From the NCBI RefSeq assembly GCF_900142985.1, contig NZ_LT670849.1, positions 6,898,501-6,962,500 of the forward strand: a stretch of 64,000 nucleotides of DNA, written 5' to 3'. Of the stretch, positions 18,707 to 23,147 are shown in pieces. How positions within the stretch are numbered: position 1 is the stretch's first letter; each line of letters opens with the position of its first letter. Under the pieces are notes generated by a model that was not told the DNA's origin, ran no database searches, and saw only the letters and a program-made list of their open reading frames with translations. The DNA comes from Bradyrhizobium erythrophlei (GTDB taxonomy: Bacteria > Pseudomonadota > Alphaproteobacteria > Rhizobiales > Xanthobacteraceae). Both the position numbers and the translations under genes were made by a program.

Positions 18707-19401
18707 TGGCGGCGCAAGTAGCGGTCAAAGCCGCGGGTGGGCGCGGACGTTTCATCTCCTTTGAGGGAGGTGAGGGGTCGGGCAAATCCACGCAGATCAA
18801 GATTCTTGCCGAACGATTGGCCGGCGTGAAGCTGCACACGCTTGTGACCCGTGAGCCTGGCGGATCACCGGGCGCCGAAATCATCCGCCATCTGGTTCTG
18901 TCCGGGATGGGCAAGTTGCTTGGCCCCGAGGCGGAAACGCTGCTGTTCGCGGCCGCACGCGATGACCATGCGCGCACCGTTATCGAGCCCGCGCTCAAGC
19001 AGGGCACATGGGTGCTGAGCGACCGCTTTTCGGATTCGACCCGCGTCTATCAGGGAACCCTCGGAAAGGTCGCGCCCGGACTTCTCAATGCGATGCAGCG
19101 GGTGACGATTGGTGATCTGAAGCCGGACCTTACGGTGATCCTCGACGTTCCCGTCGAGATCGGTCTCAAGCGTGCTGCCGCGCGGCGCGGCAACGCTGCA
19201 GCCGACCGGTTCGAGTCGGAAGACATCACGTTTCATCAAAAGCTGCGTGACGCCTATCGGCAGATCGCGAAGGACGAACCGCAACGCTGTGTACTGATCG
19301 ACGCCAGCGAGGAGCCGGCAAAAGTTGCGGCAAACGTCTGGTCGGCCTTGCGCGACCGCTTTTTCGCTGCCAACGCAGGTAATGCGGCGGCGCCGGCATG
19401 A
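18706..19401 (+). CDS. tmk: Thymidylate kinase
   Basis: dTMP + ATP gives dTDP + ADP. The P-loop is FEGGEGSGKSTQIK, followed by the dTMP site motif VTREPGGSPGAE and the DRFSDSTRVYQG motif; EAETLLFAAARDDHA is the usual helix. The length (231 aa) is normal. The ATG at 18706 overlaps the TGA of the dac gene; a GTG one codon earlier is possible. The gene is followed by holB with a four-base overlap, the common order in alphaproteobacteria (tmk-holB). Confidence 0.95.
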   Translation: MAAQVAVKAAGGRGRFISFEGGEGSGKSTQIKILAERLAGVKLHTLVTREPGGSPGAEIIRHLVLSGMGKLLGPEAETLLFAAARDDHARTVIEPALKQGTWVLSDRFSDSTRVYQGTLGKVAPGLLNAMQRVTIGDLKPDLTVILDVPVEIGLKRAAARRGNAAADRFESEDITFHQKLRDAYRQIAKDEPQRCVLIDASEEPAKVAANVWSALRDRFFAANAGNAAAPA

Positions 19402-20435
19402 GCAGCAAGGCTGAGACTCAAATTCCGGTTTCTCGTCCCCGCGAGACCACCGATCTGTTCGGCCACCACGAAGCCGAGGCGGCGCTGTTGAATGCCTACC
19501 GCAGCGGACGCATCCCGCATGCCTGGCTGATCGGCGGCGCGCAGGGCATCGGCAAGGCCACGCTCGCCTACCGGATGGCCCGCTTCGTCCTTGCCCATCC
19601 CGATCCTCGTTCGGCGATTGTCCAGCGCGCCGACAGCCTGAACGTCGATCCATCGGATCCGGCGGCGCGCCGCATCGCGGCCGAAGCGCATGGCGGGCTT
19701 CTGGTGCTTCAGAGGACGGCCAACGACAAGGGCGTGATGCGGACTGTCATAACGGTCGACGAGACGCGCGAAACCATCGGCTTTTTCGGTTCGACAGCCG
19801 CCGCCGAAGGATGGAGGGTTTGCATCGTCGACACCGTCGACGAGCTCAATCCGAATGCCGCGAACGCGCTGCTCAAGACCCTCGAAGAACCGCCGCGCCA
19901 ATCGCTGTTTCTGTTGATCAGCCACGCACCGGGCAGGGTCCTGCCGACCATTCTGTCGCGCTGCCGGCGGCTGTCGTTGCGGCCGCTCGGGACCGCTGAC
20001 GTGATCAAGGCGGTGAGCCGGGCGACGGGGCTCGCCGGCACCGACCCTGCACTCCTCGAGGCGGCCGAGGCAGCGGAGGGAAGCGTCGCACGGGCGTTGA
20101 CGCTGCTCGGAGGCGACGCCGTCAAACTTCACAACAAGACCGCGGCGCTGCTCGCGGCCCTGCCTCGGGTCGATCCGCGCGAACTGCATGCGTTGGGCGA
20201 CGCGCTGGGCGGTAGCGACAAGGTGGCGCTCGCAACCTTCGTCGACAGCATCGACCGCTGGGTGGGCGCGCGCATGCGGACCGGCGACCCCAACGCCGAC
20301 CTGCCGCGCCTTGCACGGCTGGCGGAGGTATGGGAAAAGATCAGCCGCGCCGCGCGCGATACCGCTGAATACAATTTAGAGCGAAAACCGCTCGTATTCT
20401 CGGTATTTGGGATGCTTGCGGAAGCTACGCGATAA
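19398..20435 (+). CDS. holB: DNA polymerase III delta' subunit
   Basis: Part of the clamp-loader complex. The P-loop is GGAQGIGKATLAYR and the DEVH-like sensor part reads CIVDTVDELNPNAANALLKTLEEPP, with the arginine finger context SRCRRLSL. The sequence matches AAA+ clamp-loader subunits and has normal length (345 aa). It overlaps tmk by four bases and precedes metG by 54 bp. Confidence 0.93.
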   Translation: MSSKAETQIPVSRPRETTDLFGHHEAEAALLNAYRSGRIPHAWLIGGAQGIGKATLAYRMARFVLAHPDPRSAIVQRADSLNVDPSDPAARRIAAEAHGGLLVLQRTANDKGVMRTVITVDETRETIGFFGSTAAAEGWRVCIVDTVDELNPNAANALLKTLEEPPRQSLFLLISHAPGRVLPTILSRCRRLSLRPLGTADVIKAVSRATGLAGTDPALLEAAEAAEGSVARALTLLGGDAVKLHNKTAALLAALPRVDPRELHALGDALGGSDKVALATFVDSIDRWVGARMRTGDPNADLPRLARLAEVWEKISRAARDTAEYNLERKPLVFSVFGMLAEATR

Positions 20436-20489
20436 CAGCGGTCCCTCAAATCCCGATAGTCTTGTTTGATCCGATATAAGGAATTCGCC

Positions 20490-22361
20490 GTGGCGAAGGC
20501 TGCGAAAAAAACCGTCAAGAAAAAAGCAAAAAAGGCTCGTAAAGCGCGGGCTGGTGCGAAGCGTGCCGTAGCCAAGAAGAGCAGAAAGGCGGCCAAGAAG
20601 ACCGTCAAGAAAGCCGCAAAGAAGGCGGCGAAAAAGGCAGTCAAAAAGAGCGCGAAGAAAGCCGCCAAAAAAGCAGCCCAGAAGCCTGCCACCAACGCGC
20701 CGGCGAAGACAAAGACTCCACCCACGGGTTCGAAGAAAACGAAAGCGGCAGCCGAGCCGAAGGCGAAGGCCGGCGCAGCGGCCTCCACTCCAGCGCCAAA
20801 GGCGCCGATCGCACGAACCAAAAACTCGTTCTACATCACCACTGCCATCGCGTACCCGAATGGCGTTCCCCATATCGGCCACGCCTACGAGGCGATCGCG
20901 ACCGATGCGCTGGCGCGCTTTCAGCGGCTCGACGGCAAGGACGTGTTCTTCCTGACCGGCACCGACGAGCACGGCCTGAAGATGATCCAGACCGCGGAAG
21001 CCGAACAGCTGACGCCCATGGAGATAGCGACGCGCAACGCCCAGCGTTTCAAGGAGATGGATCAGCGGCTGAATATCTCCTTCGACCGCTTCATCCGCAC
21101 CACCGAAGAGCAGCATCATCGCTCCAGCCAGGAAATCTGGAACCGGATGGTCGCGAATGGCGACATCTATCTCGACAGCTATTCCGGCTGGTACTCGGTG
21201 CGCGACGAGGCCTACTACGCCGAAGAGGAAACCACCCTCGGCGAGGACAATGTACGCCGCGGGCCGCAGGGTTCACCGGTCGATTGGGTAGAAGAGAAGA
21301 GCTACTTCTTCCGTCTCTCGGCCTATCAGGACAAGCTGCTTAGGCTTTACGAGTCGCAGCCGGATTTCATCGGGCCGGATTCGCGCAAGAACGAAGTGGT
21401 CAGCTTCGTCAAAAGCGGATTGCGCGATTTGTCGGTCTCCCGCACGACCTTCGATTGGGGCGTCAAGGTGCCCGGCGATCCCGAGCACGTGATGTATGTC
21501 TGGGTCGATGCGCTCACCAATTACATCACCGGCGTCGGCTTTCCCGATGAAGGAGACAAGGACTGGCACTACTGGCCCGCAGACGTCCACATCATCGGCA
21601 AGGATATTATCCGCTTCCACGCGGTGTACTGGCCGGCATTCCTGATGTCGGCCGGCATTCCCGTGCAGAAGCGCGTCTATGCGCACGGCTTCCTGTTCAA
21701 TCGCGGTGAGAAAATGTCGAAGTCGGTCGGCAACGTCGTCGACCCCTTCAATCTCGCCGACCAGTACGGTGTCGATCAGACGCGTTATTTCTTCCTGCGC
21801 GAGGTGCCGTTCGGCCAGGACGGCAGCTATAACCATGAAGCCATTGTCGCGCGCATCAATGCCGATCTCGCCAACGATCTCGGCAACCTGGCGCAACGTT
21901 CGCTGTCGATGCTCGCCAAGCAGTATCAAGGCGTGCTGCCGGAGCCGGGCGAATTCACCGATAACGACAAGGCCATTCTGGCGCAGGCCGACGGCATGAT
22001 CGCTCTCGCGCGAAGCGCGATGGCGACCCAGCAGATTCATCAGGCGTTGAATGCGGTATGGGCGGTGGTGGCCGAAGCCAACCGGTATTTCGCCGGCGAA
22101 GCTCCGTGGGCACTGGCCAAGACTGATCCGAAGCGTCAGGCGACGGTGTTGTACGTGACGGCCGAGGTCGTGCGGCAGACCGCCATTCTGGCACAGCCGG
22201 CGATGCCGAAAGCCTCAAGCAAGCTGCTCGACATTCTAGGCATTCCCGATGACGTCAATTCCCGCAACTTCGTGGCGCTCGCGACAAGGATCCAGCCAGG
22301 TTCGGTGCTTCCACCGCCGGCCCCGGTATTTCCGCGTTACATCGAGCCGACGGTAGCGTGA
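20490..22361 (+). CDS. metG: Methionyl-tRNA synthetase with histone-like N-terminal extension
   Basis: The core (from residue ~112, [24 protein letters not shown]) has the HIGH-type motif (HIGH), the catalytic [14 protein letters not shown] region, [11 protein letters not shown], and KMSKS ([10 protein letters not shown]). It charges tRNA-Met. Residues 1-111 are a lysine/alanine-rich stretch (repeated KKAAKKA units, then Pro/Thr/Ala-rich linker) like a histone H1 tail or AlgP. No methionine or other start lies between this tail and the core, so it is an in-frame fusion. The GTG at 20490 is chosen because AAGGA lies seven bases upstream; a TTG at 20466 is in frame. The C-terminal tRNA-binding domain is absent. 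Confidence 0.93.
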
Positions 22362-22370
22362 GCAGGGCCA

Positions 22371-23147
22371 ATGCTCGTCGATAGCCACTGCCATCTCGAC
22401 TTTCCCGACTTTGCTGAAGATCTCGACGGCATTGTCGCACGGGCCGAGACGGCCGGCATCGGGCGGATCGTCACCATTTCAACGCGGGTGAGACGGCTCG
22501 ATGCGCTGCTTGCGATCACCGGCAAATACGCTCCTGTCTATTGCTCGGTCGGCACCCATCCGCATCAGGCCGACGAGGAAGACGGCATTCCTGCGGACGA
22601 ACTGATCGCCTTGACCAAACATCCCAAGGTCGTCGCGCTTGGCGAGGCCGGGCTGGATTATTTCTACGAGCACGGTTCGCGCGAGGCGCAGGAGCGGGGC
22701 TTTCGGACCCATATTGCCGCGGCGCGCGCCACCGGTCTTCCGCTCGTCATCCACACCCGCGAGGCGGATGAGGATTGCGAGCGAATTCTGGTCGATGAGA
22801 TGACCAAGGGAGCGTTTCGCGCGGTGCTGCATTGCTACACCGGCGGGCGAAAGCTCGCGATGAAAGCTATCGATCTCGGCCTGTCGATCTCGTTCACAGG
22901 CATCCTGACGTTCAAGAAGTCGGACGAATTGCGCGCGCTCGCCGCGGAATTGCCTGCGGATCGCATCATGGTCGAGACCGACGCGCCGTATCTCGCGCCC
23001 GGCAAATTCCGCGGCAAGCGCAATGAGCCGGCCTATGTGGTGGAGGTCGCCAAGGTGCTGGCGGAAGCCCGCGGCGTTTCGCTGGAAGAGATTTCCCGCC
23101 AGACGTCCGAGAACTTCTTCCGCCTGTTCTCCAAAGTGCCCGCATGA
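22371..23147 (+). CDS. tatD: TatD-family metal-dependent DNase/hydrolase
   Basis: TIM-barrel hydrolase of the TatD family with the metal ligands in order: DSHCHLDFP (H-x-H), GEAGLDYFY (E), VIHTREAD, AVLHCYTG and ETDAPYL (D). Length (258 aa) is normal. It starts nine bases after metG and overlaps the MBL gene by four bases, so it is in the same operon; metG-tatD-MBL is a common order in alphaproteobacteria. Confidence 0.93.
   Translation: MLVDSHCHLDFPDFAEDLDGIVARAETAGIGRIVTISTRVRRLDALLAITGKYAPVYCSVGTHPHQADEEDGIPADELIALTKHPKVVALGEAGLDYFYEHGSREAQERGFRTHIAAARATGLPLVIHTREADEDCERILVDEMTKGAFRAVLHCYTGGRKLAMKAIDLGLSISFTGILTFKKSDELRALAAELPADRIMVETDAPYLAPGKFRGKRNEPAYVVEVAKVLAEARGVSLEEISRQTSENFFRLFSKVPA

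What the first reader, a model, noticed from the sequence alone, without database searches (positions are those of the whole stretch)
20490..20822. Methionyl-tRNA synthetase fused to a histone H1-like lysine/alanine tail
About 110 residues of KKAAKKA-type repeats plus a Pro/Ala/Lys linker precede the HIGH-containing MetRS core, with no start codon between tail and core, so the tail is part of the enzyme unless a frameshift exists. The core lacks the C-terminal tRNA-binding domain. A polybasic appendage could supply tRNA binding, as lysine-rich extensions do in eukaryotic synthetases, or bring the enzyme to nucleic acid. This is an inference.
Basis: partly seen in the sequence, partly recalled or inferred. 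Interest (0 to 1): 0.8.

Follow-up and report, generated by a model that had tools for sequence, protein, structure and literature searches.

The report
Methionine tRNA enzyme with lysine-rich tail
In Bradyrhizobium soil bacteria the essential enzyme that loads methionine onto its tRNA usually begins with a long, floppy, strongly positive tail resembling that of histone H1; the tail is real and appears to be kept lysine-rich by selection, and it may help the enzyme hold RNA.

Summary
metG runs from a GTG at 20490 (AAGGA seven bases upstream) to 22361. Its first 111 residues (37 Lys, net +41) precede a complete MetRS core. No in-frame ATG/GTG/TTG lies between residue 1 and residue 152, past HIGH, so the tail cannot be skipped by those starts. 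It is no assembly error: of 96 same-genus genomes read (of 265 searched) 92 carry a K-rich tail (one with a broken tail frame), 3 start cleanly at the core, 1 is cut by its contig end. In 102 tails, length and sequence vary but net charge stays near +45, Lys is preferred to Arg (0.83 against 0.35 in cores), and 25 of 25 close pairs keep more lysine than a neutral model predicts. AlphaFold2 gives the tail very low confidence. In eight Bradyrhizobium genomes a foreign-looking catalytic domain sits between resident tail and resident anticodon domain. Lacking the C-terminal tRNA-binding domain is ordinary here: eight of eight tail-less relatives tested lack it too. My best reading, untested, is a disordered RNA/tRNA tether, like lysine-rich extensions of eukaryotic synthetases; DNA, polyphosphate or protein binding, or near-neutrality, remain open. 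Eight paper searches showed no description of it.

The parts
20478..20482 (+). AAGGA, likely ribosome-binding site, 7 nt before the GTG
   Evidence: Sequence. A crude SD-like motif was found before 87 of 107 tail starts.
20490..22361 (+). metG, methionyl-tRNA synthetase, 623 residues counting the GTG start, then a stop codon; the only metG found in the genome
   Evidence: The other PF09334 matches lie in LeuS, IleS, ValS and CysS.
20490..20684 (+). Lysine/alanine-rich basic part of the tail, about residues 1-65 (KKAAKKA-type)
   Evidence: pLDDT under 50 over residues 1-108.
20685..20822 (+). Pro/Ala/Lys linker of the tail, about residues 66-111
   Evidence: low pLDDT to residue 108.
20823..21902 (+). 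MetRS catalytic part (tRNA-synt_1g); at the equivalent of 20823 a divergent cassette begins in relatives such as L158
   Evidence: PF09334 to residue 471; junction profiles, part trees.
20871..20882 (+). HIGH signature
   Evidence: Core position 17.
21711..21725 (+). KMSKS signature
   Evidence: Core position 297.
21936..22334 (+). Anticodon-binding domain PF19303; no PF01588 after it
19398..20435 (+). Upstream neighbour called holB here (DNA polymerase III delta-prime-like; name recalled, no profile run), found beside metG in the relatives compared
22371..23147 (+). Downstream neighbour called tatD here (TatD-like; name recalled, no profile run), found beside metG in most relatives compared
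   Evidence: short loci do not reach it.

Best explanation
The gene makes one protein: an ordinary bacterial MetRS with a disordered, lysine-rich N-terminal tail of about 110 residues. Shown by sequence: the tail is in one frame with the enzyme without a later start, is nearly genus-wide, fast in sequence, steady in charge and lysine content, and separable from the catalytic domain. Predicted: disorder. Inferred: it is a polycationic tether that binds RNA, mainly tRNA and perhaps ribosome-bound RNA, without sequence specificity, raising local tRNA concentration or residence time at the active site, as lysine-rich extensions are thought to do in some eukaryotic synthetases. It would improve the enzyme without being needed for catalysis.
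For: No bypass start. Tail in 92 of 96 genus genomes read. In 102 tails net charge +44.7 with sd 5.9 and K/(K+R) 0.83 against 0.35 in cores, whose own mean net charge is -14. 25 of 25 close pairs hold more lysine than the 97.5% bound of a neutral simulation; pooled pN/pS 0.42 in tails, 0.08 in cores, every pair below 1. Very low AlphaFold2 confidence over residues 1-108. Resident tail kept above a divergent catalytic domain. Five other synthetase genes of this genome (LeuS, IleS, ValS, CysS, PheT) have at most 9 Lys in any 50 residues of the parts read (four of the five reads are cut by locus ends). Precedent: the N-terminal domain of human LysRS is disordered and its lysines bind tRNA (PMC6213541, passages).
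Against: No binding or activity data. Tail-less genes serve 3 of 96 genus genomes and 88 of 99 family loci read. Of the seven other frames with 12 or more Lys in 50 in the genome sample, the four that I named by Pfam are Ku, an HhH-GPD repair protein, TfoX_N and an AhpC/TSA-family protein; the first two act on DNA, which favours DNA as much as RNA. The acidic segment near the core in 10 genus genomes is not obviously expected of a simple tRNA tether. Tail pN/pS is five times that of the core.
Confidence: 0.5

Rival explanations
1. The tail holds MetRS on the nucleoid or on DNA, as lysine repeats do for actinobacterial topoisomerase I; the enzyme would be spread along transcribing DNA or have a DNA-linked second role.
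For: KKAxKKA composition resembles the H1-like lysine repeats of TopA (PMC7398561 passages). Ku and an HhH-GPD protein in the same genome carry basic tails.
Against: All 26 proteins found with the tail alone carry MetRS domains, though that search saw only proteins of 0.55-1.75 times our length. A translation enzyme has no evident DNA substrate (general knowledge).
Confidence: 0.2
2. The tail is a charge-based switch or storage device: it binds polyphosphate or is modified on lysine to change activity or location under stress.
For: H1-like AlgP affects polyphosphate granules in Pseudomonas (PMC9239181, title and abstract start in the listing). The lysine preference over arginine would suit lysine-specific chemistry.
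Against: No direct evidence here; lysine preference also suits loose RNA binding.
Confidence: 0.1
3. The tail mediates protein-protein contact (dimer or a synthetase complex).
For: Yeast MetRS uses its N-terminal appended domain to bind Arc1p (PMC4394549 passages). The acidic segments in some species could pair with basic partners or with the tail itself.
Against: I saw no conserved residue pattern in the tails, only composition.
Confidence: 0.07
4. Near-neutral low-complexity expansion: a tolerated repeat in front of an essential frame.
For: The tail evolves fast (pooled pN/pS 0.42), varies from 76 to 223 residues, and is absent in relatives.
Against: Lysine is held above neutral expectation in 25 of 25 pairs, against a 90% G+C fourfold-site composition. 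An open frame alone is no evidence, since the essential core enforces it.
Confidence: 0.12

Closest known systems
Bacterial methionyl-tRNA synthetase (NCBIfam NF008900, TIGR00398; nearest solved chains 4dlp and 2x1l, from Brucella and Mycobacterium by recall)
   Same: Whole core, both signatures, anticodon domain.
   Different: Those chains align from our residue 105 or 113 onward; they have no such tail.
Lysine-rich N-terminal extensions of eukaryotic synthetases (human LysRS RID; yeast AspRS, seen only as a cited title)
   Same: N-terminal, disordered, polybasic, appended to a complete enzyme (PMC6213541 passages).
   Different: In LysRS the key residues named lie at positions 19-40; here there are about 110 repeat-like residues on a class I bacterial enzyme. 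RNA binding and common descent not tested here.
Lysine-repeat tails of bacterial DNA proteins (actinobacterial TopA; TopA of Caulobacter and Bordetella; HupB from a listing)
   Same: H1-like lysine repeats, GC-rich hosts (PMC7398561 passages; HupB: PMC5676037, listing).
   Different: C-terminal in TopA and on DNA proteins; here N-terminal and on a translation enzyme.
C-terminal EMAPII/Trbp-like tRNA-binding domain (PF01588)
   Same: Proposed job only: extra tRNA grip.
   Different: Absent from this protein; the single PF01588 match in the genome is in PheT.

Membership tests
Bacterial MetRS | Curated profile above cut-off | tested here: met
   NF008900 656.2 against 598; TIGR00398 517.7 against 336.
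Bacterial MetRS | HIGH and KMSKS signatures and anticodon-binding domain | tested here: met
Bacterial MetRS | Methionylation of tRNA-Met | not testable with these tools
   No assay; it is the only metG found in the genome.
MetRS with C-terminal tRNA-binding domain | PF01588 at the C terminus | tested here: not met
   No match in the protein.
Histone H1 / H1-like nucleoid proteins | Lysine/alanine-rich basic repeat composition | tested here: met
   37 Lys and 36 Ala of 111.
Histone H1 / H1-like nucleoid proteins | A named histone or H1-like domain | tested here: not met
   No Pfam family matches the tail at E 0.001.
Histone H1 / H1-like nucleoid proteins | DNA binding or nucleoid location | not testable with these tools
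   No assay.
Lysine-rich appended synthetase extensions | Terminal polybasic disordered extension on a complete synthetase | tested here: met
   disorder is predicted only.
Lysine-rich appended synthetase extensions | Extension binds tRNA | not testable with these tools
   Needs a binding assay.
Lysine-rich appended synthetase extensions | Common descent with the eukaryotic extensions | not tested
   No comparison was run; the sequence is of low complexity.

The most novel reading that the evidence does not exclude
Bradyrhizobium has evolved a MetRS whose charged, disordered N-terminal tail is a separable module, in some species a basic block plus an acidic block, that places translation's methionine supply on an RNA or nucleoid scaffold. 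Catalytic domains can be exchanged beneath it while the tail stays.
Probability: 0.3. Interest if true: 0.75.

Novelty: new variant of a known kind. Interest (0 to 1): 0.55.

Why it matters
To my knowledge, appended basic tails on synthetases are known mainly from eukaryotes. A bacterial, nearly genus-wide case with natural tailed and tail-less alleles, and with a foreign-looking catalytic domain under a native tail, would make a clean test of what polybasic tails do for a synthetase in bacteria that live in soil and nodules. For annotation it says that metG starts which include the tail should not be trimmed to the core.

Tried and rejected
Rejected: internal start (none of ATG, GTG, TTG in frame before residue 152). 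Rejected: assembly error (same anatomy in 92 of 96 genus genomes; the 120 proteins listed are 556-655 aa long against a 512-aa core). Rejected: a second, tail-less metG in the genome (other PF09334 matches are LeuS, IleS, ValS, CysS). Rejected: a free-standing tRNA-binding partner of the Trbp/CsaA kind (the only PF01588 match is PheT). Thought unlikely: simple acceleration of MetRS in the eight odd genomes, since the divergence is confined to the catalytic part and that part groups elsewhere with support 99; a long-branch artefact is not excluded, and the nearest outside catalytic parts are only 75-76% identical, so no donor is named. Not decided: whether the sporadic tails in distant genera of the family (L022/L143, one locus seen twice; L126, L129, L137, L234) are separate gains or transfers; the FastTree count of 11 changes rests on several weakly supported branches. 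The 3 tail-less Bradyrhizobium genes carry the AAAGGC-type leader and first residues like those of tail-less genera; sliding identity did not show whether that is loss, retention or recombination.

Limits. A tail was called as at least 8 Lys in some 25 residues of the in-frame extension (last 170 residues). The 96 genomes are not a random draw: 56 came with the best matches of two searches, 40 were picked by me from their lists, some for odd frame lengths; in the capped lists I saw only G134, G164, G065 and G001 with open frames under 590 aa. Seven of the 265 gave no match at E 1e-200. The 262 tree rows and 107 tails hold the window's own locus twice (L001, L120); L183 was dropped from the tail statistics because its frame has no start, and the five distant-genus tails from the means. 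L181 and L232 were left unassigned on the tree. The 25 pairs use each locus once but are not strictly independent. The neutral model takes fourfold-site frequencies as equilibrium and kappa 3 (assumed), which probably overstates lysine loss. The pN/pS of repeats depends on the alignment. AlphaFold2 also gives residues 403-415 of the core low confidence, and its five models average 58-78. The g25 loci were picked half for long and half for short frames, so 5 of 10 is no frequency. L236 has a shorter Arg/Lys-rich extension below the rule. The printout was cut (parts of L187-L202); one search counted them and printed ten of them. Paper searches listed no paper on this tail; only open-licence papers are held, and of the papers I saw listings, abstract starts or passages, never a whole text.

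Full report
What is there. The metG frame opens with GTG at 20490, preceded by AAGGA at 20478-20482, and stops at 22361. Residues 1-111 are a lysine/alanine-rich stretch followed by a Pro/Ala/Lys linker; the MetRS core begins at N112 (20823). The core passes NF008900 and TIGR00398, has PF09334 and PF19303 and no PF01588, and the nearest solved chain, 4dlp (Brucella by recall), aligns with residues 105-620. It is the only MetRS found in a 7.5-Mb one-contig genome: the other PF09334 matches lie in LeuS, IleS, ValS and CysS. After the GTG the next in-frame ATG, GTG or TTG is residue 152, beyond the HIGH motif, so an active enzyme cannot start after the tail by any of these codons.

Is it chance or artefact. 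In three stretches of the same genome, 1.26 Mb in all, 5,442 six-frame open frames of 100 aa or more were scanned; the MetRS tail has the most lysine-rich 50 residues (22), the next frame 16. In the same genus (g1) I read sequence for 96 distinct genomes out of 265 searched: 92 have a tail by the rule of 8 Lys in 25, 3 have none (G134, G164, G065) and 1 (G001) is cut by its contig end. One of the 92, G240, has a tail whose reading frame is broken. g1 is Bradyrhizobium: the named record of Bradyrhizobium sp. ARR65 (L010, contig of 92,728 bases) and G107 (L216, contig of the same length) give the same tail and core identity. All 26 proteins found with the tail alone at E 1e-5 carry MetRS domains; that search covered only proteins of 0.55-1.75 times our length and scored 7,995 candidates, and four of the 26 are the window's own protein.

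Distribution. Of 80 named loci, the nearest by the core, 11 have the tail: L009-L013, L015-L018, L020 and L022. Of 99 loci read from other genera of the family, 11 have it: L126, L129, L137, L143, L221-L225, L231 and L234; L232 runs open to the end of the stretch. The two sets overlap in organisms. Genus g25 holds both states; in g28 15 of 15 loci read have a clean start, the 16th genome giving no match. In a sample of the class (134 genomes, completeness 95 or more), 107 besides the window's own gave a match; the seven with the longest open frames after the window's were read and none holds a lysine-rich stretch by the rule, the most being 5 Lys in 25. So the tail is centred on Bradyrhizobium, with scattered cases in its family. 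On a FastTree of 262 unique cores (108 tailed, 152 not, 2 unassigned) tail state changes at least 11 times. That count depends on weakly supported branches.

Selection. In 102 tails, leaving out five from distant genera, length is 143 with sd 24 (76-223), Lys 28%, net charge +44.7 with sd 5.9 (28-66), and Lys/(Lys+Arg) 0.83; cores have 0.35 and a mean net charge of -14 over their first 500 residues. Across 25 close pairs the pooled pN/pS is 0.42 in tails and 0.08 in cores, and each pair's dN/dS is below 1. Evolving each tail neutrally to the core's dS, with stops forbidden, the real partner kept more lysine than the 97.5% bound of 60 runs in 25 of 25 pairs. The frame staying open proves little, because an essential core follows it; the lysine and charge are what argue for function. 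AlphaFold2 with a 22-sequence alignment gives residues 1-108 pLDDT under 50, while the core is mostly above 80 except residues 403-415.

The tail as a module. Eight genomes (L151-L158; L020 is a record with the same tail and a core identical to L151's) have a core only 72-74% identical to the window's, although the flanking genes are as similar as in other Bradyrhizobium. Between L158 and L173 flanks are 89-90% and the tail 90% identical in DNA, the first 1 kb of the core 58-81%, and the rest 83-96%; the drop begins at the tail/core junction. L158 with L162 and L156 with L173 look alike. In three other pairs (L020/L012, L157/L118, L155/L171) the tails themselves are only 67-76% identical and the left edge is not sharp. 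Control pairs without the odd core (L173/L162, L173/L164) show no drop in the core. In a tree of the catalytic part the eight group together (support 100) beside tail-less Mesorhizobium, Hoeflea, Nitratireductor and Hyphomicrobium loci (support 99), at 72-76% identity; in a tree of the anticodon part they fall in five places next to ordinary Bradyrhizobium-type rows, with supports of 46-84. The plainest reading is that a foreign catalytic domain was put in place under resident tails. Recombination needs homology, so a breakpoint at the first conserved core residues is expected; keeping the tail does not by itself prove usefulness. It does show that tail and catalytic domain are separable.

How it most likely works. 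A disordered chain of charge about +41 on a core of negative net charge will seek polyanions. The likeliest partner for a synthetase is tRNA, or RNA near ribosomes. Human LysRS offers the precedent: its disordered N-terminal domain binds tRNA through lysines, without specificity, and also binds DNA (PMC6213541, passages). A lysine-rich insert is believed to aid tRNA binding in yeast GlyRS1 (PMC3306390, passages). In bacteria, lysine repeats stabilise topoisomerase I on DNA and raise its processivity (PMC7398561, passages). The tail is not a substitute for a part lost here alone: eight of eight tail-less relatives scanned also lack the C-terminal domain. The functional steps are inference.

Against and open. 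Tail-less enzymes serve 3 of 96 Bradyrhizobium genomes and 88 of 99 family loci read. Seven other frames in the genome sample have 12 or more Lys in 50; the four that I named are a Ku protein, an HhH-GPD protein, a TfoX_N protein and an AhpC/TSA-family protein, so a general habit of this genome, partly DNA-directed, is possible. Ten of the 96 genomes have 8 or more acidic residues among the last 60 before the core, which I cannot explain.

Verdict. A real, nearly genus-wide polybasic tail on an essential bacterial enzyme, with evidence of selection on its lysine content; a new variant of a known kind, with untested function.

Noticed in passing
L151-L158 (G156, G160, G158, G157, G143, G190, G178, G161) and L020: The catalytic domain of MetRS (about the first 1 kb of the core) is divergent inside otherwise resident metG; its nearest kin on the part tree are tail-less Mesorhizobium, Hoeflea, Nitratireductor and Hyphomicrobium loci at 72-76% identity.
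   Followed up: yes
L190, L191, L199, L203, L204, L206-L209, L220: In these ten Bradyrhizobium loci the last 60 residues before the core hold 8 or more Asp/Glu, in most as repeated EIEVAEVE-like stretches.
   Followed up: partly
L204 (G022): The tail is a long Arg/Glu/Lys/Ala repeat (KERERKKKAA type) that looks coiled-coil-like instead of H1-like.
   Followed up: no
L183 (G240): The tail's start lies in another frame than its second half and the core; sequencing error or a real broken frame. Described only.
   Followed up: partly
Own genome 295144, 2979832, 7187611, 7205347: Lysine-rich tails on a Ku protein, an HhH-GPD protein, a TfoX_N protein and an AhpC/TSA-family protein: basic tails may be a habit of this genome.
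   Followed up: partly
window 20505-20511, 20520-20526, 20528-20534, 20667-20673: Poly-A runs in the tail (one A7, three A6G; the one at 20528 in the phase of a -1 slippery site, by recall of that motif), which could favour slippage.
   Followed up: no
5' leaders of metG in the loci: Two leader types: AAAGGAA-type was found only before tailed genes (74 of 108), AAAGGC-TTCGC-type only before tail-less genes (21 of 152); the rest fit neither pattern.
   Followed up: partly
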